This document shows, one piece after another, positions 5,033-13,154 of a stretch of 13,154 nucleotides of DNA (its first letter is position 1; every line of letters begins with the position of its first letter). Location: NCBI GenBank assembly GCA_003150315.1, contig QAML01000053.1, positions 1 through 13,154 of the forward strand, read 5' to 3'. Made by a program: the position numbers and the translations under genes. The notes under the pieces were generated by a model. It did not search any database, was not told the DNA's origin, and was given only the letters and a program-made list of their open reading frames with translations. This stretch comes from Prevotellaceae bacterium. Its GTDB lineage: Bacteria; Bacteroidota; Bacteroidia; Bacteroidales; Bacteroidaceae.

Positions 5033-5085
5033 ACGACAATAAAGATGACACAGCGTACATAAGGTAAAAAATCCCGGCTTTGCCG

Positions 5086-5187
5086 ATCTCCGAAAAAACA
5101 CATGGCTTATCGTAAAAAATACAAGGCACTTATTTTAAAATAAGTGCCTTGTATTTCAAAATATATGCCTTGTATTTTTCGCCTTTA
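5086..5187. repeat. 21-bp repeat array A, two units diverging on each side of an 18-bp palindromic centre
   Basis: Cores related to GCCTTGT occur on the minus strand at 5100-5106 (as GCCATGT) and 5121-5127, and on the plus strand at 5146-5152 and 5167-5173. Within each arm the step is exactly 21 bp. The centre (5128-5145, acttattttaaaataagt) is a perfect palindrome, so that 5117-5156 is a flawless 40-bp inverted repeat. After each core comes an AT-rich tail (ATTT or GTTT). The array lies upstream of the beta-helix gene promoter and downstream of btuG. In RNA it would form a long hairpin; in DNA the 21-bp step equals two helical turns. Function unknown. Related arrays occur at 9663 and 13081. 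Confidence 0.9.
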
Positions 5188-5310
5188 CAAGTCTTTGACA
5201 GACAACAACTTACAAAAACTTTTCAAAACCTCTTAACTGTCTGGTTTTAAGCCTTTTGTGATTTTCGGCGATTCTTGCAGGAATTTTTCTGCCAAATGCT
5301 GTTTCGAAAC

Positions 5311-5339
5311 ATTCCGTCCGCCTTGAAAACGGACGGGAT
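5311..5339 (-). terminator. Hairpin downstream of btuG
   Basis: ATTCCGTCCG (5311-5320) pairs with CGGACGGGAT (5330-5339), with one G-U pair, around a 9-base loop, starting 5 bp after the btuG stop. The T-run beyond it on the minus strand is short, so termination efficiency is uncertain. Confidence 0.55.
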
Positions 5340-5344
5340 GTCTT

Positions 5345-6529
5345 TTACTTCAAACCTCTCAACGAAGTGGTTGTAAAGGCTATGTGTCCCGGAATGATTC
5401 CCGTTGTCGCGCTCCATTTGAGTTTTCCGTCTGCGGTGTAGCAGTAGAGCTGTCCGGGGTTCTTAAAATCTTTTGCGTCAGCCACGAAAATTTCTTTTGT
5501 GTCGGGATTCACAGCTATGGCATAGGGCATGACTATACGGCTGTCGCTTCCGTCGGTTATGAAACCGCTCTTCGATAGTTCCTTGGTCTTTGTGTTGTAT
5601 AGCGAATAGGAATTGGTGGCTTCGTAAGTGGGAGCCTTGTATTCCACACCTATTATATATAGGTTGTCGCCCGCTGCGGCAATGGCCGAAACCCTCGTGT
5701 CGATAGAATCGCTCAATGCTGCAGTTGCTGTGTTGACTACGTAAATTTTTGAACTAACCGTAGAATAGTTTCCGGTTGATATAACGTAAAGGTTGTCGTT
5801 TTTATCGAGCGCAACCTTGCCAAGATTCAAACCGGCATCTATTGTCTTTTCAATCTGCATGGTTTCGGGATTGATTACATTTATCGAGTGCTCGTAGTTG
5901 GGATACATGTATCCGCCCGAATTAGCCACAAAAATTTTTCCGTTGGCATAAGCAATTCCTTCCGGCTGATACCCCACGGTTACTGTGGTTTCCACTGTGT
6001 TTGTGTTGAGGTTCACTTTATAGACCGAGCCTTTGGGCGTTGCAGAAGTTTGGTCGTTGGGATCGATATAAGAGGAAACATAAGCATAATTGCCGTTGAA
6101 GGCTATGAAACGACAGGCAGGAATATTGATCGAAGCCACATGTTTGCCGGTTTTGGCATTCATAACCTCAACAAGATTCGAACCGTTTATAACGGCATAG
6201 ACCTTGTTTTTGTAAACCTGTATGTCGTTTCCCGTATCGCCGAGACCGAGAGTAACGTCAGGGTTAATGGTCGGAAACAAATTGAGATAGAAGCTGCCAT
6301 TGCTGTAATCGAAATAATCCAACGAGGCTTTGTTCGTGTCCTTTTGCCCTTCGTTCAGCACAAAAACGCCTTTCTGCGCAATATTCTTTTGCGGAGTGGT
6401 TACATTAGTGCCCGCAATGTCGATTTTAGGGGTTTCGTTGTCTTCGGAGCAGGATGTAAACTGAAAAGCCGCCGACAAAGTCAAAACGGCAATCGCACCT
6501 AAGCGATAGAATTTCTTTGAATTTCTCAT
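5345..6529 (-). CDS. btuG: BtuG-like cobalamin-binding surface lipoprotein (YncE/DUF5074-type beta-propeller)
   Basis: This is a 394-residue lipoprotein. The signal ends TSC with the acylated cysteine at residue 27, followed by SEDNE, an acidic stretch of the kind that directs Bacteroidetes lipoproteins to the cell surface. The rest is a series of beta-propeller blades with repeated patterns such as VYKVNLNTNTVE and INVINPETMQIEKTI, each followed by a segment like IFVANSGG or LYVISTG. In Bacteroides thetaiotaomicron, BtuG is a surface propeller that captures cobalamin with very high affinity and associates with BtuB. Here the gene starts 3 bp after the btuB stop, downstream of a cobalamin riboswitch, which makes this assignment much stronger than fold alone. 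The ligand-binding residues cannot be checked by eye. The gene is likely cotranscribed and translationally coupled with btuB. Confidence 0.78.
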   Translation of the reverse strand: MRNSKKFYRLGAIAVLTLSAAFQFTSCSEDNETPKIDIAGTNVTTPQKNIAQKGVFVLNEGQKDTNKASLDYFDYSNGSFYLNLFPTINPDVTLGLGDTGNDIQVYKNKVYAVINGSNLVEVMNAKTGKHVASINIPACRFIAFNGNYAYVSSYIDPNDQTSATPKGSVYKVNLNTNTVETTVTVGYQPEGIAYANGKIFVANSGGYMYPNYEHSINVINPETMQIEKTIDAGLNLGKVALDKNDNLYVISTGNYSTVSSKIYVVNTATAALSDSIDTRVSAIAAAGDNLYIIGVEYKAPTYEATNSYSLYNTKTKELSKSGFITDGSDSRIVMPYAIAVNPDTKEIFVADAKDFKNPGQLYCYTADGKLKWSATTGIIPGHIAFTTTSLRGLK

Positions 6530-6532
6530 ATT

Positions 6533-8527
6533 CTATATGTTTATTAATAAAGTGATCTTATAATTTCTTCCCGGCATGGGGTAACACCTCACTACATCGT
6601 AGTGTCGGTTCAAAACATTATTGACAGCCAGCGAAAGTTTTGCCTCGAAGCCCCCGAACAAAAGGTCGCGGTTCACGGCAAAGTCATTTATGTAGTAACT
6701 GCGAATGAAATTCGCGGGAACATTTGCACTTGAATCGTAACGCTTTCCCGTGTACAGGAAACTATAATCCGCGCTCCACCGCTTCCAAGCCACATTCACC
6801 ACCGCCGAAGCCGAATGTTTCGGAATGTAAGCAATCTGTCCCTTGTAATAAGGACTGTGGCGGTCGGAACAATCCATTGAGCGTTGATAAGAATAGTTGG
6901 CTTTCGCCGCAATTTCCACTTCTCCCGCCCTGAGTGCCGCCTCGCCTTTGACATCAATCCCGTGAACCAAAACTTTCCCGAGATTTATCATCGTCCAACG
7001 GAATTGGTTGGTGGTGGGAACGGCTATGATTTTGTTGGTAATGCGATTTATGTATCCGTCAACTTTTATCTCGAGGTTTCTAACCGTTTTGCGGTCTCTC
7101 ACAATGCTCCACGAAATTCCCAAGTCCGCCTGCAAGGCGTTTTCGGGCTTCAAATTGGAATTTCCGATAAAGGTGTAATACAAATCGTTAAGCGTTGGCA
7201 CACGATAGGAACGCTTGCAAAAAGCACGCAAAGCCACTCCCTGCAAAAAATGCGGGTACCACGCCGCAAAAACTGCGGGAGTGAAGCCAGTATGTTCCGA
7301 ATCTTTTCCGCCGCGATGGTTTCGTGCGCGATTATATATGTATGTAGTCAATGCGTTTCCCTGTATTTCGAAATCACCCAACCTTCCGTTTACGGCGGCA
7401 GAGACATATATGCTGTTTCGCAAAGGCTTGGCAAATTCCTTCAAATCGGCATCGAGAGCATCGAGAGCGTAATCGGCGGAAAACGATGCCTGCAGTTTTT
7501 CGGAGAAATCATATTTGTTTGCCACCGAAAGGTACACGCCGTTCTGATGATAGTGATTGTTCACGAACATAGTGCCTTGGTCGCGGCGCGAGTCATGAAA
7601 GTAATGGAGGTAGTCGTATGAAAACTTCGTGTTGACCTGCAACGAATAATTTCCGAACCTTTTGGTCATCGCGCCTTGCGCAAATGCGTTGAAATCTCTC
7701 TGACGGTCAATGTTCGAGAGGCGGTTTCTTACCACAGCTCCCGGCAATCCGCGCCGCGAGGAATAGACATATCCCCTTGCACGCCAGTTACCGTTGTTCA
7801 TAAGTCCGTAAAGCGAAGCCTCGCCTCTCATCACGGTTATGTCGCCATTGCGTCTTGTGGCTGTGGTGTCGTATCCGCCGTCAAGGTGATAGCGGTATTT
7901 ATATCTGCCGTCGGACGTGAGCCACGCGGCATTGATTTGCAGAGCCGTTTTGTCCGACAGTTTTTGCTCCCAAAGCAGTTCGGGCGAAAAAGTTCCGAAT
8001 GACCCGCCCTCCAGAACGGCTCGCAGGTTATAAGATTTGTCTTGAAATTCGGGGCGGCGCGGCACTATGTCCACATCGGATGCCGAAGCGAAATTGCGGG
8101 CAGGCTTGAAAATACTGCCGTTTCCGCCATTACTGAGGGTTATTCCGCCTATGTTTGCGAGCGAAAACTTTCCGAGATCCACAATACCGTTTTGCGCGTT
8201 CACCATCTGCACTCCGTCATAGCTCACAGAGGTATGTTCCGTTCCCATGCTGCGTACATCTATGGTTTTCAGCCCGCCTATTCCGCCGTAGTCCTTGAGC
8301 TGCACGCCCGAGAAGTATCGCATGGCATCGGCTACGCTGTATGAATTCATGCGTCTCAGGTTTTCGCCGGAGAGAGTCTGCTGCGAAGTCATGGCGTATG
8401 CCTTGCGATGCACGCTCACCACCGCTTCGGACAGAGCGGGAGCGGTAATGGTGTCGCGCAATGCGGGTTGCTCCTGCGCATATACGCCGGAAAACCAAAA
8501 CAACAATATATATATGTATTTCTTCAT
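6533..8527 (-). CDS. btuB: TonB-dependent vitamin B12 receptor BtuB
   Basis: The protein is a 664-residue outer-membrane receptor. Its signal peptide is about 1-17 (MKKYIYILL...VYA|Q), a TonB-box-like LSEAVVSV lies at 32-39, and the plug follows (DAMRYFSGVQLKDYGGIGGLKTIDVRSMG, then VSYDGVQM). A long 22-strand-type barrel ends in LAVNNVLNRHYDVV and a final strand KITLLINI. No N-terminal carboxypeptidase-regulatory domain is present, which fits BtuB-type rather than SusC-type receptors. Cobalamin as substrate is inferred from the B12 riboswitch in the leader and the btuG neighbour. I chose the ATG at 8527: it gives a proper signal peptide and has AAGGAA just upstream, while the open frame extending to 8635 would start inside the regulatory leader. 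It ends in TAG. Confidence 0.88.
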   Translation of the reverse strand: MKKYIYILLFWFSGVYAQEQPALRDTITAPALSEAVVSVHRKAYAMTSQQTLSGENLRRMNSYSVADAMRYFSGVQLKDYGGIGGLKTIDVRSMGTEHTSVSYDGVQMVNAQNGIVDLGKFSLANIGGITLSNGGNGSIFKPARNFASASDVDIVPRRPEFQDKSYNLRAVLEGGSFGTFSPELLWEQKLSDKTALQINAAWLTSDGRYKYRYHLDGGYDTTATRRNGDITVMRGEASLYGLMNNGNWRARGYVYSSRRGLPGAVVRNRLSNIDRQRDFNAFAQGAMTKRFGNYSLQVNTKFSYDYLHYFHDSRRDQGTMFVNNHYHQNGVYLSVANKYDFSEKLQASFSADYALDALDADLKEFAKPLRNSIYVSAAVNGRLGDFEIQGNALTTYIYNRARNHRGGKDSEHTGFTPAVFAAWYPHFLQGVALRAFCKRSYRVPTLNDLYYTFIGNSNLKPENALQADLGISWSIVRDRKTVRNLEIKVDGYINRITNKIIAVPTTNQFRWTMINLGKVLVHGIDVKGEAALRAGEVEIAAKANYSYQRSMDCSDRHSPYYKGQIAYIPKHSASAVVNVAWKRWSADYSFLYTGKRYDSSANVPANFIRSYYINDFAVNRDLLFGGFEAKLSLAVNNVLNRHYDVVRCYPMPGRNYKITLLINI

Positions 8528-8570
8528 CTGTTTCCTTCTGCTATAAAGGTTGGCTCCGAAAGGAAACAGA
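8527..8570 (-). promoter_or_regulatory. Helix sequestering the btuB ribosome binding site (riboswitch expression platform)
   Basis: In the mRNA, UCUGUUUCCUU (8570 to 8560) pairs perfectly over 11 bp with AAGGAAACAGA (8537 to 8527). The 3' strand holds the only good Shine-Dalgarno of btuB (AAGGAA) and the first base of the AUG. A closed helix would block initiation, so this is the likely translational switch of the upstream cobalamin riboswitch. The 22-base loop is free to pair elsewhere in the alternative state. Confidence 0.75.
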
Positions 8571-8587
8571 ACACATACGACAACACT

Positions 8588-8613
8588 GGCGGCACAGTTC
8601 CCCACACACCGCC
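8588..8613 (-). other. Linker hairpin in the btuB leader
   Basis: In the transcript GGCGG (8613 to 8609) pairs with CCGCC (8592 to 8588), and the stem can be lengthened by several G-U pairs. It lies between aptamer and the RBS helix and has no T-run. It may be part of the switching region; its role is not evident. Confidence 0.4.
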
Positions 8614-8654
8614 TTGGGAAGAACGCCCGGGGCATGCTTCCGCCATGTTGTCCG

Positions 8655-8885
8655 CTCCCGTCCTCGCAGGTACCGAACAGTTATGGGCTGCGGCAGGTCT
8701 TCCGGCTCGTCATGTTTCACACCTTCTCACAGCCAACGGCTGCAATGGCTTTCATACCCGCAGGTACGGCGAAACATTGTCCTCAAGGGACATGGCGAAA
8801 GCGCACACGGCACTTTCCGAGAGACACACGGCAACGGGATTGTGCGGGATTCCCACCCGCTTCCCTTTTAATTGCATGAACACGC
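8655..8885 (-). ncRNA. Cobalamin riboswitch (B12 element) of btuB-btuG
   Basis: The reverse strand carries the conserved landmarks of the cobalamin aptamer in order. First AAAAGGGAA (8869 to 8861). Then a GCGGG/CCCGC hairpin (8856-8860 with 8844-8848) in the place of the usual GGTG..AATCC arm, followed by AATCCCGTTGCC (8841 to 8830). A variable central region follows. Finally the B12 box GAGCCGGAAGACCTGCCGC (8708 to 8690), nearly identical to the consensus AGCCAGGAGACCTGCC, then CCATAACTG. Cobalamin or adenosylcobalamin binding should repress the downstream genes. The exact P1 and kissing-loop boundaries are my estimate. The start of btuB lies about 130 bases downstream, with an RBS-sequestering helix in between, so control is probably translational. 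Confidence 0.93.
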
Positions 8886-8898
8886 CCTTTCGGGGGCG
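8883..8898 (-). other. GC-rich 5' leader hairpin before the riboswitch
   Basis: CGCCC (8883-8887) pairs with GGGCG (8894-8898) around a six-base loop, just upstream of the aptamer in the transcript. No T-run follows, so it is not a terminator; it may cap or protect the 5' end. Confidence 0.4.
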
Positions 8899-8919
8899 GA
8901 ATGCAAACCGCAGTCGGTG

Positions 8920-8927
8920 CAAAGTTA
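8920..8927 (-). promoter_or_regulatory. -7 box of the riboswitch-btuB-btuG transcript
   Basis: The reverse strand reads TAACTTTG, an exact TAnnTTTG match, placed so that transcription begins shortly before the leader hairpin and the whole aptamer. The -33 region has only a TTTT stretch around 8944-8947. Confidence 0.55.
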
Positions 8928-9002
8928 CGGATATTTGGCTTAAGAAAAGGCTTTGCCACGAAAATTCTGTGCGCCGGCAAAACGACGCATGAGCCTGCCC
9001 CG

Positions 9003-9437
9003 CTAAATCTTCTTTATATAAACGTTGGTTTCCTTGGTTTCGAAACCCACGGAACGATAGAGCGCGTTGGCGGCAATGCGCGAAGGGCGCGACGTGAGCA
9101 TAACTGTGAGTCTTCCGAGCTTCCGTGCACGCTCGAGAATGTGCATGACAAGAAATTTTCCGAACGAACGCCCGCGAAAACGGGAATCAACAACCACATC
9201 TTCTATCCACGCTTTTCTGCCAATGGGCGAAACATAGACGCACAGGCTTGCCATTCCCACAATCTCCCCGCCGCAAGAAAGCAAAAACAAACAGCTTGCC
9301 TCCGAACCTGCGATAGTTTCGAGATTGCTCCGTGTGAACACGGGGCTTTCTCCGTCAAGCTGCCTCAAAAGGCGGTTTACCGCCGCAACATACTCGTCGC
9401 GGCATTCGCGCACTTCGAAAATTTCCACATTATCCAT
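9003..9437 (-). CDS. GNAT-family N-acetyltransferase
   Basis: This 144-residue protein is a single GNAT domain. The core strand and acetyl-CoA loop read AWIEDVVVDSRFRGRSFGKFL (beta 4 and motif A at about 76-95), with R86-x-x-G89-x-S91 in place of the usual R-x-x-G-x-G/A. The NALYRSVGFE-like end is the typical motif B. GNAT enzymes of this kind acetylate small amines or protein termini; the substrate cannot be read from the sequence. I chose the ATG at 9437 and not the one at 9482, because a TAnnTTTG box at 9461-9468 would put the transcript start downstream of 9482, and because homologous GNAT proteins begin close to the EIFEVREC strand. It lies on the same strand as the B12 locus but upstream of that promoter, so it is a separate unit. 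Confidence 0.85.
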   Translation of the reverse strand: MDNVEIFEVRECRDEYVAAVNRLLRQLDGESPVFTRSNLETIAGSEASCLFLLSCGGEIVGMASLCVYVSPIGRKAWIEDVVVDSRFRGRSFGKFLVMHILERARKLGRLTVMLTSRPSRIAANALYRSVGFETKETNVYIKKI

Positions 9438-9460
9438 GTCATACCTATTACAAAACGCTG

Positions 9461-9468
9461 CAAATCTA
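9461..9468 (-). promoter_or_regulatory. -7 box of the GNAT gene
   Basis: The reverse strand reads TAGATTTG, matching TAnnTTTG, 23 bp before the ATG at 9437. It argues against the upstream start at 9482. No convincing -33 element is seen. Confidence 0.45.
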
Positions 9469-9662
9469 CCACAAATCGGCAACAGCAGCGCGCACCGCGA
9501 CTTAATCGGAAAAAGTTAAGGTTTTTTCGCCGAACTCCATTAATATATTTCGGGAATATCGCAAAAACCGGGAAAAACACATACGTTGCAAACCATGCGA
9601 AAAGCCCAAAAATCACATTCGCTAAGTTCTTGAATATCAACGTTCCCATTTTCGCGAAAAAT

Positions 9663-9736
9663 ACAAGCCATATATTTTAAAATACAAGGCACATATTTTG
9701 AAACAAATGCCTTGTGTTTTGAAACAAGTGCCTTAT
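9663..9736. repeat. 21-bp repeat array B, two units diverging on each side of an 18-bp centre
   Basis: Minus-strand cores lie at 9663-9669 (GGCTTGT) and 9684-9690 (GCCTTGT); plus-strand cores lie at 9709-9715 (GCCTTGT) and 9730-9736 (GCCTTAT). The steps are 21 bp in each arm and the central gap is exactly 18 bp (9691-9708), the same layout as array A. Here the centre acatattttgaaacaaat is an imperfect palindrome and single bases have drifted, but no spacing has changed. The array lies between the divergent GNAT and nitroreductase genes, outside both promoters. Confidence 0.9.
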
Positions 9737-9809
9737 ATTTTTTTTGCTTCAAAATGTGTGCAGAAAAATTTACTGCTGCTTAAAAAAAACAAAAGCCATG
9801 CGCCGGAAC

Positions 9810-9840
9810 TTGCGGATTGCGCAAATTAATAGTAATTTTA
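9810..9840 (+). promoter_or_regulatory. Promoter of the nitroreductase-family gene
   Basis: TTG (9810-9812), 20 bp, then TAATTTTA (9833-9840), which matches TAnnTTTG at all but the last base. It lies 25 bp before the ATG at 9866. Confidence 0.55.
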
Positions 9841-9865
9841 CCGCGACATATAAAACAGGAAAACA

Positions 9866-10504
9866 ATGAACATTTCACTTTTACGCAATTTTGCCGTGGC
9901 AGTTTCAATGGCAGCCGCCTCGGTTTGCTCGGCACAAAACGACATAAAACTTCCGCAACCCGACAAGACGTTGAAAACCACGCTTATCGACGCACTTCAG
10001 AACCGACACTCGGTGCGCGATTTCACAGAAAAAGATTTCAGCAACCAAGACCTCGCCACACTTCTTTGGGCTGCAAACGGCATTAACCGCGAAGACGGCA
10101 AGCGCACGGCACCGTCGGCTCTCAACAAGCAAGACGTGGAGATTTTTGTCATTCGCAAAGACGGTGCATACTATTGGAATGCGCAAACCAACACACTCGA
10201 ACTGCGCAGCAACCAAGACCTGCGTTCCGCCGTGGCTCGCGGACAGGAATTCGTGGCAAAAGCCCCGCTGTCATTGGTATTGGTGAGCAACGGAGCCAAA
10301 TTCGGCAACATGCCCAACAAGTTCGGACTTGCCGATGCGGGCTATGTGAGCCAGAACATCTGTCTAATCTGTTCGGCTGCGGGATGGGCTTGCTGCCCGA
10401 GGGCAACAATGGACAACGAAACCCTTGCGGAGCAACTGAAACTCACTCCCAAACAAGTGCCAATGCTCAACAACACCGTGGGATATAGTAAAAGCGCGAA
10501 ATAA
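9866..10504 (+). CDS. Nitroreductase-family (SagB/ThcOx-like) protein with signal peptide
   Basis: The protein has 212 residues. The first 23 form a signal peptide (MNISLLRNFAVAVSMAAASVCSA|Q). The mature part is a single nitroreductase fold: RHSVRDF (47-53) is the FMN-phosphate-binding start, followed by LLWAANGINREDGKRTAPSALN (about 67-88), the typical second flavin-contact segment, and GLADAGYVSQNICL before the C-terminal helices. The family binds FMN and reduces nitro groups, quinones or other acceptors with NAD(P)H, or dehydrogenates peptide heterocycles. Export is unusual, since NAD(P)H is not available in the periplasm, so the electron donor is unclear. It may be lipid-free and periplasmic, since AASVC is a poor lipobox. 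It is monocistronic, with its own promoter and a terminator that overlaps its stop codon. Confidence 0.87.
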   Translation: MNISLLRNFAVAVSMAAASVCSAQNDIKLPQPDKTLKTTLIDALQNRHSVRDFTEKDFSNQDLATLLWAANGINREDGKRTAPSALNKQDVEIFVIRKDGAYYWNAQTNTLELRSNQDLRSAVARGQEFVAKAPLSLVLVSNGAKFGNMPNKFGLADAGYVSQNICLICSAAGWACCPRATMDNETLAEQLKLTPKQVPMLNNTVGYSKSAK

Positions 10505-10517
10505 TTCGCGCTTTTTT
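10490..10517. terminator. Bidirectional terminator shared by nitroreductase and DUF2461 genes
   Basis: AAAAGCGCGAA (10490-10500) pairs perfectly with 10505-10515 around the loop ATAA, with six T on the plus strand. The plus gene's TAA (10502-10504) lies in the loop, and the stop codon of the minus-strand gene (10516-10518) lies in the T-run. The reverse strand ends in only four T. Confidence 0.88.
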
Positions 10518-11202
10518 ATTCGTAATCATCAACTGTATAATTCACAAAATCGAGCAGCGGTTTCATTTCCCTGAAAATTTCCACAACTTTCTCCTCCCAG
10601 CCCTTCGAAAGCAGAAGATCGTCATCAACAGGTGTGGAAACAGAGTAATCCTTAGGCTGCAGGTAACTTAAATATTGAAAATCTTTCGGAAAACCTTTGG
10701 GAGCGGTTTTCAAACGCTCCTCGCCGATAACCGGGAAAAGGCTTTTGAATTCGTTTTTTTCAACTATGTTTCTGAATTCGTCCAAATTGTCAACAATACT
10801 TTCCCTTATGGCTTTCAGCGTCTTGTTATCCAGACAGTAGCATCCGCCTGCAGCGAAGCAATTTCCGGGTTGGAAATGTATGTAATAGCCTCCGTGCATT
10901 GACTTCTTGCCGTGCGAATTGATATAAGCCCCCATGTGCAATTTGTAAGGACGCTTGTCGTTGCTGAAACGCACGTCTCTGTAAATGCGGTAAGTGCAAT
11001 CGTGCGGAGAAAGCCGCCCCACCTCCGGCTCAAACTCCGAAATCCTTGCGATAAGTCCTTCCACAATTTCATTAAAAGCCTCTGTCGCGGTATCATACAG
11101 ACTGCGGTGGGACTTAAACCAATCACGGTCGTTATGCTCTGCTATCTGCGCAAGAAAATCAAAAACCTTTTCGCTGCGGGAATCAACTGTTTTCTTTGAC
11201 AT
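10516..11202 (-). CDS. DUF2461 (TIGR02453) family protein
   Basis: The 228-residue protein carries the family hallmark CTYRIYRDVRFSNDKRPYK in its first half, preceded by FDFLAQIAEHNDRDWFKSHR near the N-terminus, and later GGYYIHFQPGN. It has no signal peptide and is presumably cytoplasmic. The family is widespread and its biochemical function is not established, so none is assigned. I chose the ATG at 11202. The open frame continues to 11436, but that extension covers the minus-strand -7 box at 11256-11263 and the rubrerythrin promoter, and its sequence is not protein-like. It is single, convergent with the nitroreductase gene and divergent from rubrerythrin. Confidence 0.88.
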   Translation of the reverse strand: MSKKTVDSRSEKVFDFLAQIAEHNDRDWFKSHRSLYDTATEAFNEIVEGLIARISEFEPEVGRLSPHDCTYRIYRDVRFSNDKRPYKLHMGAYINSHGKKSMHGGYYIHFQPGNCFAAGGCYCLDNKTLKAIRESIVDNLDEFRNIVEKNEFKSLFPVIGEERLKTAPKGFPKDFQYLSYLQPKDYSVSTPVDDDLLLSKGWEEKVVEIFREMKPLLDFVNYTVDDYE

Positions 11203-11255
11203 ATCGTTCTTTAGTATAAAAAGTAGGATGTTTTCAAGACCATATAAGCCTTTTG

Positions 11256-11263
11256 CAAAATTA
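11256..11263 (-). promoter_or_regulatory. -7 box of the DUF2461 gene
   Basis: The reverse strand reads TAATTTTG, matching TAnnTTTG, 53 bp before the ATG at 11202. No clear -33 element. Confidence 0.45.
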
Positions 11264-11311
11264 ATAAAAAGGCGGCACTTCAGACAGCCCTTAAATTTTT
11301 TACGAAAACAT

Positions 11312-11342
11312 TTTGTCAATTCAAAAAGTCGCCGTACCTTTG
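11312..11342 (+). promoter_or_regulatory. Promoter of rubrerythrin, full Bacteroidetes consensus
   Basis: TTTG (11312-11315), 19 bp, then TACCTTTG (11335-11342). Both elements and the spacing fit the Bacteroidetes sigma consensus, the best match in the window. The leader to the ATG at 11414 is about 65 bases and contains CCCC/GGGG complementarity (about 11350-11367). Confidence 0.8.
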
Positions 11343-11413
11343 CGCCTTCCCCCAATAAGAAACGGGGCGGAGACAAATAAACTTTTACATAACAATATAA
11401 AAAGAACAGAGTC

Positions 11414-11968
11414 ATGAAGAAGAAATTTATTTGCACCGTATGCGGTTATGTTTATGAAGGTACCGAAGCTCCGAAAGAATGCCCGATTTGCCACGCTCCG
11501 GCTTCCAAGTTTCAAGAAGTAGACGAAAACGAAGAATTGAAATTCGAAACCGAACACGTAATAGGCGTAGCAAAAGGTTGCGATGATGAAATGATAAAAG
11601 ATTTGAACGCTCACTGGCAAGGCGAATGCGGAGAAGTGGGAATGTATCTGGCTATGAGCCGTCAGGCAGACCGTGAAGGTTATCCCGAAATAGCAGAAGC
11701 GTTCAAACGTTACGCTTTTGAAGAGGCAGAACACGCTGCTAAATTCGCAGAACTCCTCGGCGACGTGGTTTGGGACACCAAAACAAATCTCGAAAAACGC
11801 GCTGCCGCAGAATCAGGTGCCTGCTCCGACAAATTCCGTATAGCTAAACGCGCAAAAGAACTGAATCTCGACGCAATACACGACACCGTGCACGAAATGG
11901 CAAAGGACGAAGCACGCCACGGACGCGGTTTCAAAGGTTTGCTCGACCGTTATTTCGGCAATAAATAA
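11414..11968 (+). CDS. rbr: Rubrerythrin with N-terminal rubredoxin domain (reverse rubrerythrin)
   Basis: Rubrerythrins are cytoplasmic NADH-linked peroxidases that remove hydrogen peroxide in anaerobes. In this 184-residue protein a rubredoxin domain comes first: [10 protein letters not shown] with cysteines 7 and 10, then CPIC with 23 and 26, the short-loop type. The ferritin-like diiron domain follows, with ECGE (71-74), EEAEH (103-107), a further glutamate near 133, and DEARH (165-169) as metal ligands. The domain order is reversed relative to classical rubrerythrin, as in the reverse rubrerythrins of clostridia. The strong promoter fits an abundant stress protein. The gene is monocistronic and ends in a strong bidirectional terminator. 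The fold is certain. Confidence 0.95.
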
Positions 11969-11984
11969 GCACTGTTTACGAAAC

Positions 11985-12030
11985 AGACACTAAAAAAACG
12001 CACCGTTAAACGGTGCGTTTTTTAGTGTCT
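11985..12030. terminator. Bidirectional terminator between rubrerythrin and the broken GNAT gene
   Basis: CGCACCG (11999-12005) pairs with CGGTGCG (12011-12017) around TTAAA; the stem is flanked by seven A (11992-11998) and six T (12018-12023), so it works on both strands. Pairing continues outward, with AGACACT (11985-11991) against AGTGTCT (12024-12030). A small extra hairpin CTGTTT/AAACAG (11972-11986) lies just upstream. Confidence 0.9.
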
Positions 12031-12056
12031 ATGCTCTCCTGGAAAATATTCTGGTT

Positions 12057-12755
12057 TCACTTTATCCAAAGGTGGTAAACATTAGTAACAGATTCGATAT
12101 GAAACCCGTTTTTCTCGTAATAATGACAGGCAACACGGTTACGCTTCTGTGTGGCAACGCTTATTTTAACGCCCAAAGCCATGCGCGACAAAAAAGACTG
12201 CATCAGCTTTGAACCGATACCCTTTCCCGCCGCCTCGGGACTTACTGCCACAATGCCTATTTCCGCTTCATTTTCGTTTATCTTGTAAGTAAGCACTCCC
12301 AAAACGTGTCCGCCCTCGCTATAAACAAGAACATCCGTTGCAATCTCGCCATTCAGCGAACGTACAATCCATAATCTGTACAACGTATCGAATACGGACT
12401 TCGGGAAGTTCTCATCCAAACGATAGCGTGAGTATTTTCCGCTTTCGTAAGACAGTTGGAGCAGCTACTCCGTCAGCGGACTGTTAAGCGCGGAAGCCAC
12501 ACGCTCATCGTCAACAGGCGTTTCGCGTCCGCTGTTCACCTGAACGTAAACAACTTTCTCATCTGCCAGAATAACATTCTCCGACAAGCAATCGCAAGGC
12601 AGGTTAACGCCTTTCAGATAAAGCAAATCATAATGCTCTTCCCGGGCATGAGCCATTTCGCGCAGGAGAAAAGATTTGTTCAAACCGCCCTCTGCAATCA
12701 GATTTCCCACCTTAATATAAAAATTATCCGTATCCCATCGTGCCGGTACTATCAT
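12057..12755 (-). pseudogene. WecD-like GNAT acetyltransferase interrupted by an in-frame amber codon
   Basis: One continuous reading frame of 233 codons runs from ATG 12755 to TGA 12057-12059, broken only by TAG at 12465-12467 (codon 97). The N-terminal half opens with ARWDTDNFYIKVGNLI, the WDSxFFG-like start of dTDP-fucosamine acetyltransferase (WecD/RffC)-type proteins. After the TAG the frame goes straight on with LLQLSYESGKYSRYRLDENF and then a complete GNAT domain (IGIVAVSPEAAGKGIGSKL is the acetyl-CoA loop; RVACHYYEKNGF is motif B). No base is missing or added, so this is a point nonsense change, a sequencing error, or readthrough. The C-terminal half has no good internal start: its first in-frame candidate is a TTG that encodes the Leu of RLDENF. 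Sugar-amine specificity is inferred from family resemblance only; no sugar nucleotide genes are nearby. Confidence 0.8.
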
Positions 12756-12918
12756 ATCTGTTTCTTTTTCAAATTCATGGATTTCACAAAACCTTAAAGG
12801 CTGCAAGGAAACCCGCACCGCACATCGGAACACTGTTCGCGCCGGAGCATTCCCGCATTTCATCTCGGCAGTAAGCACAAACACCCGTGCCACAACCGCC
12901 GTAAAAACCTTTCAAAGG

Positions 12919-12926
12919 CAAAGTTA
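12919..12926 (-). promoter_or_regulatory. -7 box upstream of the interrupted GNAT gene
   Basis: The reverse strand reads TAACTTTG (consensus TAnnTTTG), with TTG at 12945-12947, 18 bp upstream. It would give a leader of roughly 155 bases before ATG 12755. I see no riboswitch in that leader. Confidence 0.45.
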
Positions 12927-13080
12927 CAAGATTCCAAGCCTCTCATCAACTTTTTAACGCCGGTAGTTTGGAAACACGTCTGAAAGAGAAAAGATAAACC
13001 ATCTGATTTTTCGTATAAAACGTATCCTTGTTGGCATATATATGCACTTGAAGAAAAAGATTTACCTTGTAGGAAAAAAC

Positions 13081-13154
13081 ATAAGGCACGTTGTAAAAAA
13101 CACAAGCCATATATTTTAAAATACAAGGCACTTATTTTAAAATAAGTGCCTTGT
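13081..13154. repeat. 21-bp repeat array C, at least three plus one units, cut by the window end
   Basis: Minus-strand cores lie at 13081-13087 (GCCTTAT), 13102-13108 (GGCTTGT) and 13123-13129 (GCCTTGT), each 21 bp apart. An 18-bp centre follows at 13130-13147, identical to that of array A. A plus-strand core GCCTTGT begins at 13148 and ends with the window. One arm therefore has an extra unit compared with A and B. The array lies upstream of the interrupted GNAT gene. Confidence 0.9.

What the first reader, a model, noticed from the sequence alone, without database searches (positions are those of the whole stretch)
5086..13154. Dispersed 21-bp repeat arrays with fixed divergent geometry
Three intergenic arrays (5086-5187, 9663-9736, 13081-13154) share one plan: cores GCCTTGT on the plus strand to the right, the same core on the minus strand to the left, stepping by exactly 21 bp, around a centre of exactly 18 bp. 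All seven within-arm steps that I measured are 21 bp and all three centres are 18 bp, although the cores and tails carry substitutions (GGCTTGT, GCCTTAT, GCCATGT). Constant spacing with drifting sequence suggests selection on geometry. 21 bp is two turns of DNA, so a protein array bound on one face of the helix is one reading; a transcribed long hairpin acting as terminator or RNA-processing signal is another; a miniature mobile element or recombination site is a third. Three copies in 8 kb implies many in the genome.
Basis: partly seen in the sequence, partly recalled or inferred. Interest (0 to 1): 0.72.

Follow-up and report, generated by a model that had tools for sequence, protein, structure and literature searches.

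The report
Helix-phased repeat elements between genes
The three arrays look like copies of a scattered, non-coding DNA element whose short sites sit exactly two turns of the double helix apart even though their letters drift, which suggests a row of protein landing pads rather than a gene or an RNA.

Summary
Near-palindromic 21-bp boxes (AAAATACAAGGCACWTATTTT) lie end to end, each in either orientation. A relative, draft genome G001 (hRUG897, Prevotellaceae), has 89 copies of the enclosing ~180-bp element in 865 kb of unpicked sequence. Its cores come from a small set of interchangeable words; 301 of 303 core pairs keep the 21-bp lattice. None of 122 copies lies in a called gene. The window arrays are clear to weak members. 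G001 and a second draft genome, G004, hold many other arrays: 84 of 93 noncoding tandem arrays of period 14 or more have period 21 or 22. A capped model search found the element in none of 100 G001 relatives and only weak matches in 2 of 49 genomes. Tests speak against RAYT/REP, a transcribed hairpin, a dedicated terminator and a recently active MITE. Best reading: a BOX/BrickBuilt-like dispersed composite repeat whose middle is a helix-phased platform for an unidentified DNA-binding protein. Element and lattice are shown; the protein is inferred.

The parts
5095..5178 (+). Array 1: four 21-bp boxes (slots 5100 -, 5121 -, 5142 +, 5163 +)
   Evidence: box at 5100 weak (3 mismatches)
5064..5094 (+). 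Array 1, end X of the element (weak; the HMM match starts at 5075)
   Evidence: element HMM hit 5075-5216 (+), 41.4 bits with an HMM that excludes the window; no hit reported in 100 shuffled windows
5179..5240 (+). Array 1, end Y of the element (ACTTACAAAAAC etc.; the HMM match ends at 5216-5221)
9658..9741 (-). Array 2: four 21-bp boxes (slots 9663 -, 9684 -, 9705 +, 9726 +); element lies in reverse orientation, in the gap between two divergent genes
   Evidence: HMM hit 9743-9598 (-), 27.6 bits
9598..9657 (-). Array 2, end Y (GTTGATATTCAAGAACTTAGC...GATTTTTGGGC on the - strand)
   Evidence: HMM positions 51-174; reading
9742..9775 (-). Array 2, possible remnant of end X (GCACACATTTTGAA on the - strand)
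   Evidence: by eye against the consensus; outside the HMM hit
13076..13154 (+). Array 3: three full 21-bp boxes and one cut by the window end (slots 13081 -, 13102 -, 13123 -, 13144 +)
13042..13075 (+). Array 3, end X (GCACTTGAAGAAAAAG...), weak; end Y, if present, lies beyond the window
   Evidence: HMM hits 13042-13122 (+), 25.5 bits (seed HMM) and 13073-13154 (+), 15.9 bits (all-copy HMM without the window)

Best explanation
Each array is the middle of a dispersed, non-coding, intergenic composite element of about 180 bp: end X, then usually three, sometimes four, boxes of 21 bp, then end Y. Shown: the element family in G001 and in the window, the uniform 21-bp lattice, and the interchangeable, flippable core words. 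Inferred: each box (AAAnTACA...GAnATnATTT, quasi-palindromic) is a site for a sequence-specific, probably dimeric DNA-binding protein. Because the sites are two helical turns apart, the bound proteins line up on one face of the DNA and can touch; selection for that cooperative array holds the spacing while the letters drift. What the filament does (folding the chromosome, insulating neighbouring transcription units, or keeping the element itself alive as the platform of its own mobilising protein) is not resolved. The mixed gene contexts and the turnover of positions favour a genome-wide or selfish role over control of particular genes.
For: Homology across genomes: an HMM from 16 G001 copies finds window array 1 (58.8 bits), 2 (42.1) and 3 (25.5), and reports nothing in 100 shuffled windows. 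Number: 122 copies in 1.107 Mb of G001; 89 in the 865 kb not chosen for its hits. Lattice: 301 of 303 core-word pairs within 70 bp are 21, 42 or 63 bp apart centre to centre, whatever the word or orientation. With slot 2 taken from the lattice fit and slots 1 and 3 then sought freely within 6 bp, 230 of 230 intervals are exact, while the slot3-to-Y linker is 46 bp in 61 and 47 in 34 of 101 copies (the other 6 are mostly poorly anchored Y ends). Interchangeability: 116 copies, 29 combinations of word and orientation; orientations --+ 102, -++ 13, +++ 1. Direct, non-inverted arrays at 21 bp exist too (G004 L083, L085; G103), so the lattice does not need hairpins. Different families converge: 36 of 61 unit families have modal period 21 or 22; so have 51 of 56 (G001), 33 of 37 (G004) and 3 of 3 (window) noncoding arrays of period 14 or more. 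Copies are old (mean pairwise identity 58%, median nearest neighbour 75%), so geometry has outlasted sequence. No RNA strand signature. 0 of 122 in called genes.
Against: No protein is identified and no binding was measured. Fixed spacing with drifting letters is also what an old tandem duplication gives, and the copies were found with an HMM that penalises gaps. The X-to-slot1 distance is as rigid as the lattice (102 of 103 at 20 bp), so rigidity is not confined to the boxes. The central box pair covaries (score 0.428 against 0.195 shuffled), as a hairpin would. A/T periodicity at 21 bp over the whole element is weaker than at periods 13, 26 and 28. Other families have period 22, a slightly different phase. 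In other Bacteroidales the 21/22 share is lower (10 of 28 and 3 of 9 arrays) and 14-bp arrays are at least as common (12 and 5).
Confidence: 0.5

Rival explanations
1. A non-autonomous mobile element (MITE-like), spread by a transposase acting in trans. The 21-bp boxes are that transposase's binding sites or an internal minisatellite, and geometry is inherited rather than selected.
For: About 103 dispersed copies per Mb in G001, in intergenic DNA; conserved ends X and Y round the boxes; tandem dimers at 231-233 bp in 11 of 12; positions differ between species: the nitroreductase ortholog of G001 has no array within its fetched 1.5-kb flank, its rubrerythrin ortholog has a 22-bp array where the window has none. 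BrickBuilt of Porphyromonas gingivalis is a precedent: a leader, 23-nt direct repeats and a tail (PMC4596501, passages).
Against: By eye no terminal inverted repeat and no sharp boundary in the position profile; no near-identical copies (best pair 92%; identical copies may be lost in a draft assembly, 42 of 89 unpicked copies lie within 700 bp of a stretch end). It does not explain why different unit families share periods 21/22.
Confidence: 0.27
2. A transcribed long hairpin: bidirectional terminator or RNA-processing signal.
For: Each window array folds far better than shuffles as RNA on both strands (z -5.5 to -10.3); the central box pair covaries; gaps with a 21/22-bp tandem array are commoner among convergent than divergent gaps in G001 (15 of 52 against 5 of 66, p=0.003).
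Against: G-T mismatches in the central stem do not exceed A-C mismatches on the X-to-Y strand (185 and 229 cells), and folding energy prefers neither strand (55 against 57 of 116 copies); 44 of 102 copies with divergent central boxes are imperfectly complementary; elements show no significant preference (convergent 14 of 52, divergent 11 of 66, p=0.26) and G004 arrays lean the other way, not significantly; array 2 lies between divergent genes; the terminator scan lists none of the three palindromes, only a small hairpin beside array 1 (its rules on loop and tail apply); no Rfam match above gathering score.
Confidence: 0.13
3. A mutational by-product: a copying process that duplicates DNA in steps of two helical turns (slippage, or a nuclease or integrase acting across two turns), with no function of the arrays.
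For: Many different families at 21/22; long mosaics of drifting 21/22-bp units in G001 (L136, L140); one copy, L128, has one more box with end Y one step further out, and a recognisable box adjoins the three on the lattice 3 times before slot 1 and 3 times after slot 3 among 116 copies.
Against: In-place flips and swaps of core words within a conserved element; three-slot layout kept at 58% mean identity.
Confidence: 0.1

Closest known systems
BOX elements of Streptococcus pneumoniae (PMC3049150, passages seen)
   Different: Other phylum and sequence (not compared); no 21-bp two-turn lattice of flippable sites is described in the passages seen; BOX has TIRs resembling an insertion sequence.
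BrickBuilt MITE of Porphyromonas gingivalis (PMC4596501, passages seen)
   Same: Same order; reported as strictly intergenic (review PMC10969869, passages); leader and tail round short direct repeats (23 nt).
   Different: 19 copies, TIRs like those of IS5-family elements, duplications beside three of four copies with both TIRs; direct repeats only in the passages seen; no sequence comparison made here.
REP/BIME with RAYT transposases (search listing and abstract starts only; features otherwise recalled)
   Same: Many short palindromic units, alternating orientation, intergenic.
   Different: No RAYT seen: the only Y1_Tnp of G001 sits beside an OrfB_IS605 gene, and G004 gave none.
Iteron or operator arrays of DNA-binding proteins (recalled)
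   Same: Same-phase repeated sites with fixed spacing and drifting letters.
   Different: Those belong to one replicon origin or promoter; here some hundred dispersed copies per megabase in G001.

Membership tests
MITE | Terminal inverted repeats and a sharp boundary | tested here: not met
   Anchored position profile of 110 X and 102 Y ends, read by eye: gradual decay, no TIR
MITE | Target-site duplication, empty sites | not testable with these tools
   No sister-strain genomes held; boundaries unclear
MITE | Dispersed, intergenic, non-coding, many copies | tested here: met
   89 copies in 865 kb unpicked, 0 of 122 in called genes (gene calls are crude)
REP/BIME (RAYT system) | A RAYT (Y1_Tnp) in genomes that hold the repeats | tested here: not met
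   G001: one Y1_Tnp match, next to an OrfB_IS605 gene, so IS200/IS605 type; G004: none (drafts may be incomplete)
BOX/BrickBuilt-like composite repeat | Two distinct conserved ends round tandem modules | tested here: met
   Ends X and Y conserved, three boxes between
BOX/BrickBuilt-like composite repeat | Number of middle modules varies from copy to copy | tested here: inconclusive
   An extra box 3 times before slot 1 and 3 times after slot 3 among 116 copies, only one (L128) with end Y shifted by one step; window arrays 1 and 2 have four boxes
BOX/BrickBuilt-like composite repeat | Sequence homology to BOX or BrickBuilt | not tested
   Not compared; likened by architecture only
Structured RNA / terminator | Strand-specific pairing (G-U tolerated on one strand) | tested here: not met
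   GT 185, AC 229 cells; energy better on one strand in 55, on the other in 57 of 116 copies
Known Rfam RNA | Match above gathering score | tested here: not met
   Only a cobalamin riboswitch elsewhere in the window
Helix-phased protein-binding array | Sites at whole helical turns regardless of orientation and word | tested here: met
   301 of 303 pairs on a 21-bp lattice
Helix-phased protein-binding array | A protein that binds the boxes | not testable with these tools
   No candidate gene identified

The most novel reading that the evidence does not exclude
Some Bacteroidales have filled their intergenic DNA with a chromosome-wide lattice: many different site families, all phased at two helical turns (21 or 22 bp), in G001 at a hundred or more loci per megabase, forming landing strips for a family of cooperative DNA-binding proteins that organise the nucleoid or fence off transcription units. 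Selection acts on phase, while the site words are free to turn over.
Probability: 0.25. Interest if true: 0.82.

Novelty: new variant of a known kind. Interest (0 to 1): 0.55.

Why it matters
Bacterial interspersed repeats are usually explained as mobile debris or RNA hairpins. Here spacing is kept better than sequence, across core words, orientations and different families, which gives a direct handle on whether such repeats are protein platforms. If they are, a layer of chromosome organisation in some Bacteroidales has gone unannotated; such repeats may also be one reason why these draft assemblies break between genes. The test is cheap: shift the phase by half a turn and look for lost binding.

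Tried and rejected
Rejected: (1) the two-rule 'arms plus centre' geometry, replaced by one lattice. (2) My idea that the whole ~180-bp element is phased at 21 bp in A/T content: periods 28, 13 and 26 were stronger. (3) RAYT/REP. (4) RNA hairpin, after covariation had at first favoured it. (5) Dedicated terminator. A promoter role is not excluded: 6 of the 25 sigma-70-like matches of the window lie in the arrays (25 found, 16.6 expected from shuffles), but the arrays are AT-rich and Bacteroidetes promoters are of another type (recalled). (6) Conserved gene-specific control: of three window loci whose G001 counterparts I could compare, two differ. The third, the gap downstream of DUF5074, holds array 1 in the window and, in G001 (L224), two tandem copies of the same element with other core words besides 21/22-bp arrays; at such density this may be chance. 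The GNAT match in G001 (35% identity, L318) was too distant to compare. (7) Spread by phages: three exact pattern scans of viral contigs found 0. (8) An exact centre pattern in genome contigs: 0; too strict, since a similar pattern matches G001 only with 3 mismatches. (9) A statement I had drafted, that four copies are longer by one box, fell on a recheck: only one is.

Literature: ten searches listed no paper that, from its title and abstract start, describes these elements or a 21/22-bp lattice in Bacteroidales; the library is open-licence PMC only. I saw passages of PMC5771137, PMC4596501, PMC10969869 and PMC3049150, and listings only for the rest. Typical features of REP, iterons and IS200/IS605 are partly recalled.

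My gene calls are crude (coding fraction 0.66 in G001). The E. coli control is only 100 kb. The model R1 scored at most 32 or 67 candidates per genome with strict filters; at least five of the 49 genomes bear handles that also occur among the 100 relatives. Unit families rest on a loose 72% single-linkage clustering, and some have only two units.
Full report
WHAT IS THERE. Seven of the eight exact GCCTTGT cores of the window lie in them (shuffle mean 1.59), the 18-bp centre is exact in all three, and all six within-arm steps that I count are 21 bp. Box by box the window units read AAAATACAAGGCACWTATTTT with drift; of twelve boxes one is weak (5100) and one is cut by the window end. The typical box is itself nearly palindromic (AAAATA...TATTTT), so a unit can be flipped in place without leaving the lattice.

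ONE RULE, NOT TWO. In G001 (below) the convergent distances that this predicts, 19 and 40, were seen once each. Of 303 core-word pairs within 70 bp, 200 are at 21, 99 at 42, 2 at 63 and 2 elsewhere. Of four control words, three show no such peaks; the fourth differs from the core by a single base and so detects the arrays.

WHERE ELSE. No genome is held for the window. The closest rubrerythrin (90% aa) is in L001, contig OMUV01000095.1 of uncultured Prevotellaceae hRUG897, genome handle G001. Other shared genes: the iron-sulphur assembly protein 88%, the metallophosphoesterase (LpxH-like, my label) 74%, nitroreductase 68%, DUF5074 59%, TonB receptor 50%, so G001 is a relative but not a close one. 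G001 gave 19 matches to GTGCCTTGT-N12-GTGCCTTGT with up to 2 mismatches and 0 reversed-control matches. At that looseness 43 of 101 genomes have some match, mostly one or two as in their controls. Those with more than three are genomes with 7-bp repeats (G086, G077), G067 with 5 scattered matches, and G103 with 8, of which 7 are one 21-bp tandem locus. With an AT-aware pattern 12 of 393 Bacteroidales matched, G001 with 18 places and the others with at most 5; the 5 are 7-bp repeats (G199), and G236 has one 21-bp tandem.

THE ELEMENT. An HMM from 16 G001 arrays with flanks found 123 non-overlapping matches of at least 50 bits, 122 in 1.107 Mb of G001 and window array 1. Eighteen of the 98 G001 stretches had been chosen because they held matches; the other 80 give 89 copies in 864,817 bp, about 103 per Mb, in 52 of the 80. 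The consensus is end X (CACAC...AAAAACCTTCCGCAT), three boxes, end Y (GCACTGATTTTCATATAGTTACAAAGGG). Most G001 copies carry other core words than the window (ACATAGGAC, ACATTTGAG); GCCTTGT words are a minority. A sequence model (R1) found G001 but none of 100 relatives at E up to 1e-4. Of 49 further genomes two had weak matches at E up to 0.001: G453, whose match lies in what reads like a gene and which I take as chance, and G004, whose two matches (about 20 bits) are arrays with different cores. Candidates per genome were capped in both searches. The element proper is therefore known to me only from G001 and the window.

HOW TIGHT IS THE GEOMETRY. In 116 full copies (115 of G001 and window array 1; 7 of 123 ran off an end and were dropped) all three boxes are recognisable, in 29 combinations of word and orientation; orientations --+ 102, -++ 13, +++ 1. 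With slot 2 taken from the lattice fit and the others sought freely within 6 bp, slots 1 and 3 are at the exact place in 115 of 115 copies each. The linker from slot 3 to end Y is 46 bp in 61, 47 in 34, and other in 6 of 101; of those six, one (L128) has a real extra box and an intact end Y one step further out, the others look like poorly anchored Y ends. An extra box adjoins the three on the lattice 3 times before slot 1 and 3 times after slot 3 among the 116 copies. The X-to-slot1 distance is also rigid (102 of 103), which weakens the contrast, and HMM detection favours ungapped copies. Copies are old: mean identity 58%, best pair 92%. Eleven of 12 close tandem element pairs are 231-233 bp apart, about eleven lattice steps; this could be one old dimer copied about.

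A WIDER PATTERN. In noncoding DNA of G001 and G004 repeated 9-mers peak at lags 21 and 22 and their multiples; in the panel of 78 other Bacteroidales lags 14, 28 and 33 are as prominent. Tandem arrays of period 14 or more have period 21 or 22 in 51 of 56 (G001), 33 of 37 (G004), 3 of 3 (window), 10 of 28 in loci of 78 other Bacteroidales and 3 of 9 in 20 more; 100 kb of E. coli had no array at all. Clustered loosely by unit, 36 of 61 families have modal period 21 or 22 and 13 have 14. Some intergenic regions of G001 are mosaics of fifteen or more drifting 21/22-bp units of several kinds (L136, L140). G004 has direct arrays of units that do not look palindromic at 21 bp (L083, L085), so the lattice does not depend on inverted repeats.

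TESTS BETWEEN MECHANISMS. RNA: the arrays fold well on both strands (z -5.5 to -10.3) and the central box pair covaries (0.428 against 0.195 shuffled, slid versions at most 0.209). But a transcribed hairpin should tolerate G-T on its own strand more than A-C: I count 185 G-T and 229 A-C cells over 116 copies, and energies favour the two strands in 55 and 57. Terminator: elements lie in 14 of 52 convergent, 28 of 412 tandem and 11 of 66 divergent gaps (convergent against divergent p=0.26). Gaps with any 21/22-bp tandem array (134 arrays in G001, 19 of them in called genes; element boxes included) lean to convergent in G001 (p=0.003) and the other way, not significantly, in G004. Array 2 lies between the divergent GNAT (9006-9440) and nitroreductase (9866-10501) genes. 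Promoter: six of 25 sigma-70-like matches fall in the arrays; not followed. Mobile element: by eye no TIR or sharp edge, no recent copies, no RAYT. Gene-specific control: G001's nitroreductase gene lacks an array in the fetched flank, its rubrerythrin gene has a 22-bp array downstream that the window lacks. Only the gap after DUF5074 agrees: array 1 in the window, two tandem copies of the element and other arrays in G001. Curvature: no special A/T period of 21 over the element.

CONCLUSION. Shown: a dispersed composite intergenic element in two Bacteroidales, built on a uniform two-turn lattice of interchangeable, flippable boxes. Inferred: the boxes are protein sites and the lattice is selected for cooperative binding. 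Not shown: the protein, its effect, the mode of spread. The architecture resembles that of BOX elements (passages of PMC3049150) and of BrickBuilt (passages of PMC4596501), to which it is likened but not assigned by sequence.

Noticed in passing
window 8675-8927 (-): Cobalamin riboswitch (Rfam RF00174, 66.4 bits) upstream of the TonB-receptor and DUF5074 genes; probably a B12 uptake operon.
   Followed up: no
window 12057-12893 (-): A GNAT acetyltransferase reading frame (12060-12416) and an open frame with no Pfam hit (12468-12758) lie in one frame separated by a stop codon; perhaps one interrupted gene.
   Followed up: partly
L266, L269, L273, L274, L277-L280, L282-L285 (G004): A 22-bp family TTCTCATCGCGATGAGAAAACT, mostly about four units each, at 19 loci by my count in 363 kb of G004.
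   Followed up: no
L001 6724-6827, L135 9199-9370, L203 7215-7387, L210 71-223, L241 9046-9216: A 22-bp family GCATCGCARYTGTCATG in G001, about 5-8 units each.
   Followed up: no
L136 15800-16120, L140 16480-16915: G001 intergenic mosaics of about 15-20 units of several kinds at 21 or 22 bp.
   Followed up: partly
L127, L129, L133 flanks of elements: Repeated TGAATATTATTCA / TGCATATTATTCAT motifs near some elements, resembling ARG boxes as recalled.
   Followed up: no
L224 104-1774: IS200/IS605-type pair (Y1_Tnp and OrfB_IS605 genes) about 1 kb from two tandem elements in G001.
   Followed up: yes
78 other Bacteroidales loci, 20 more: Noncoding tandem arrays of 14 bp are common there (12 of 28 and 5 of 9), unlike in G001 and G004.
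   Followed up: no
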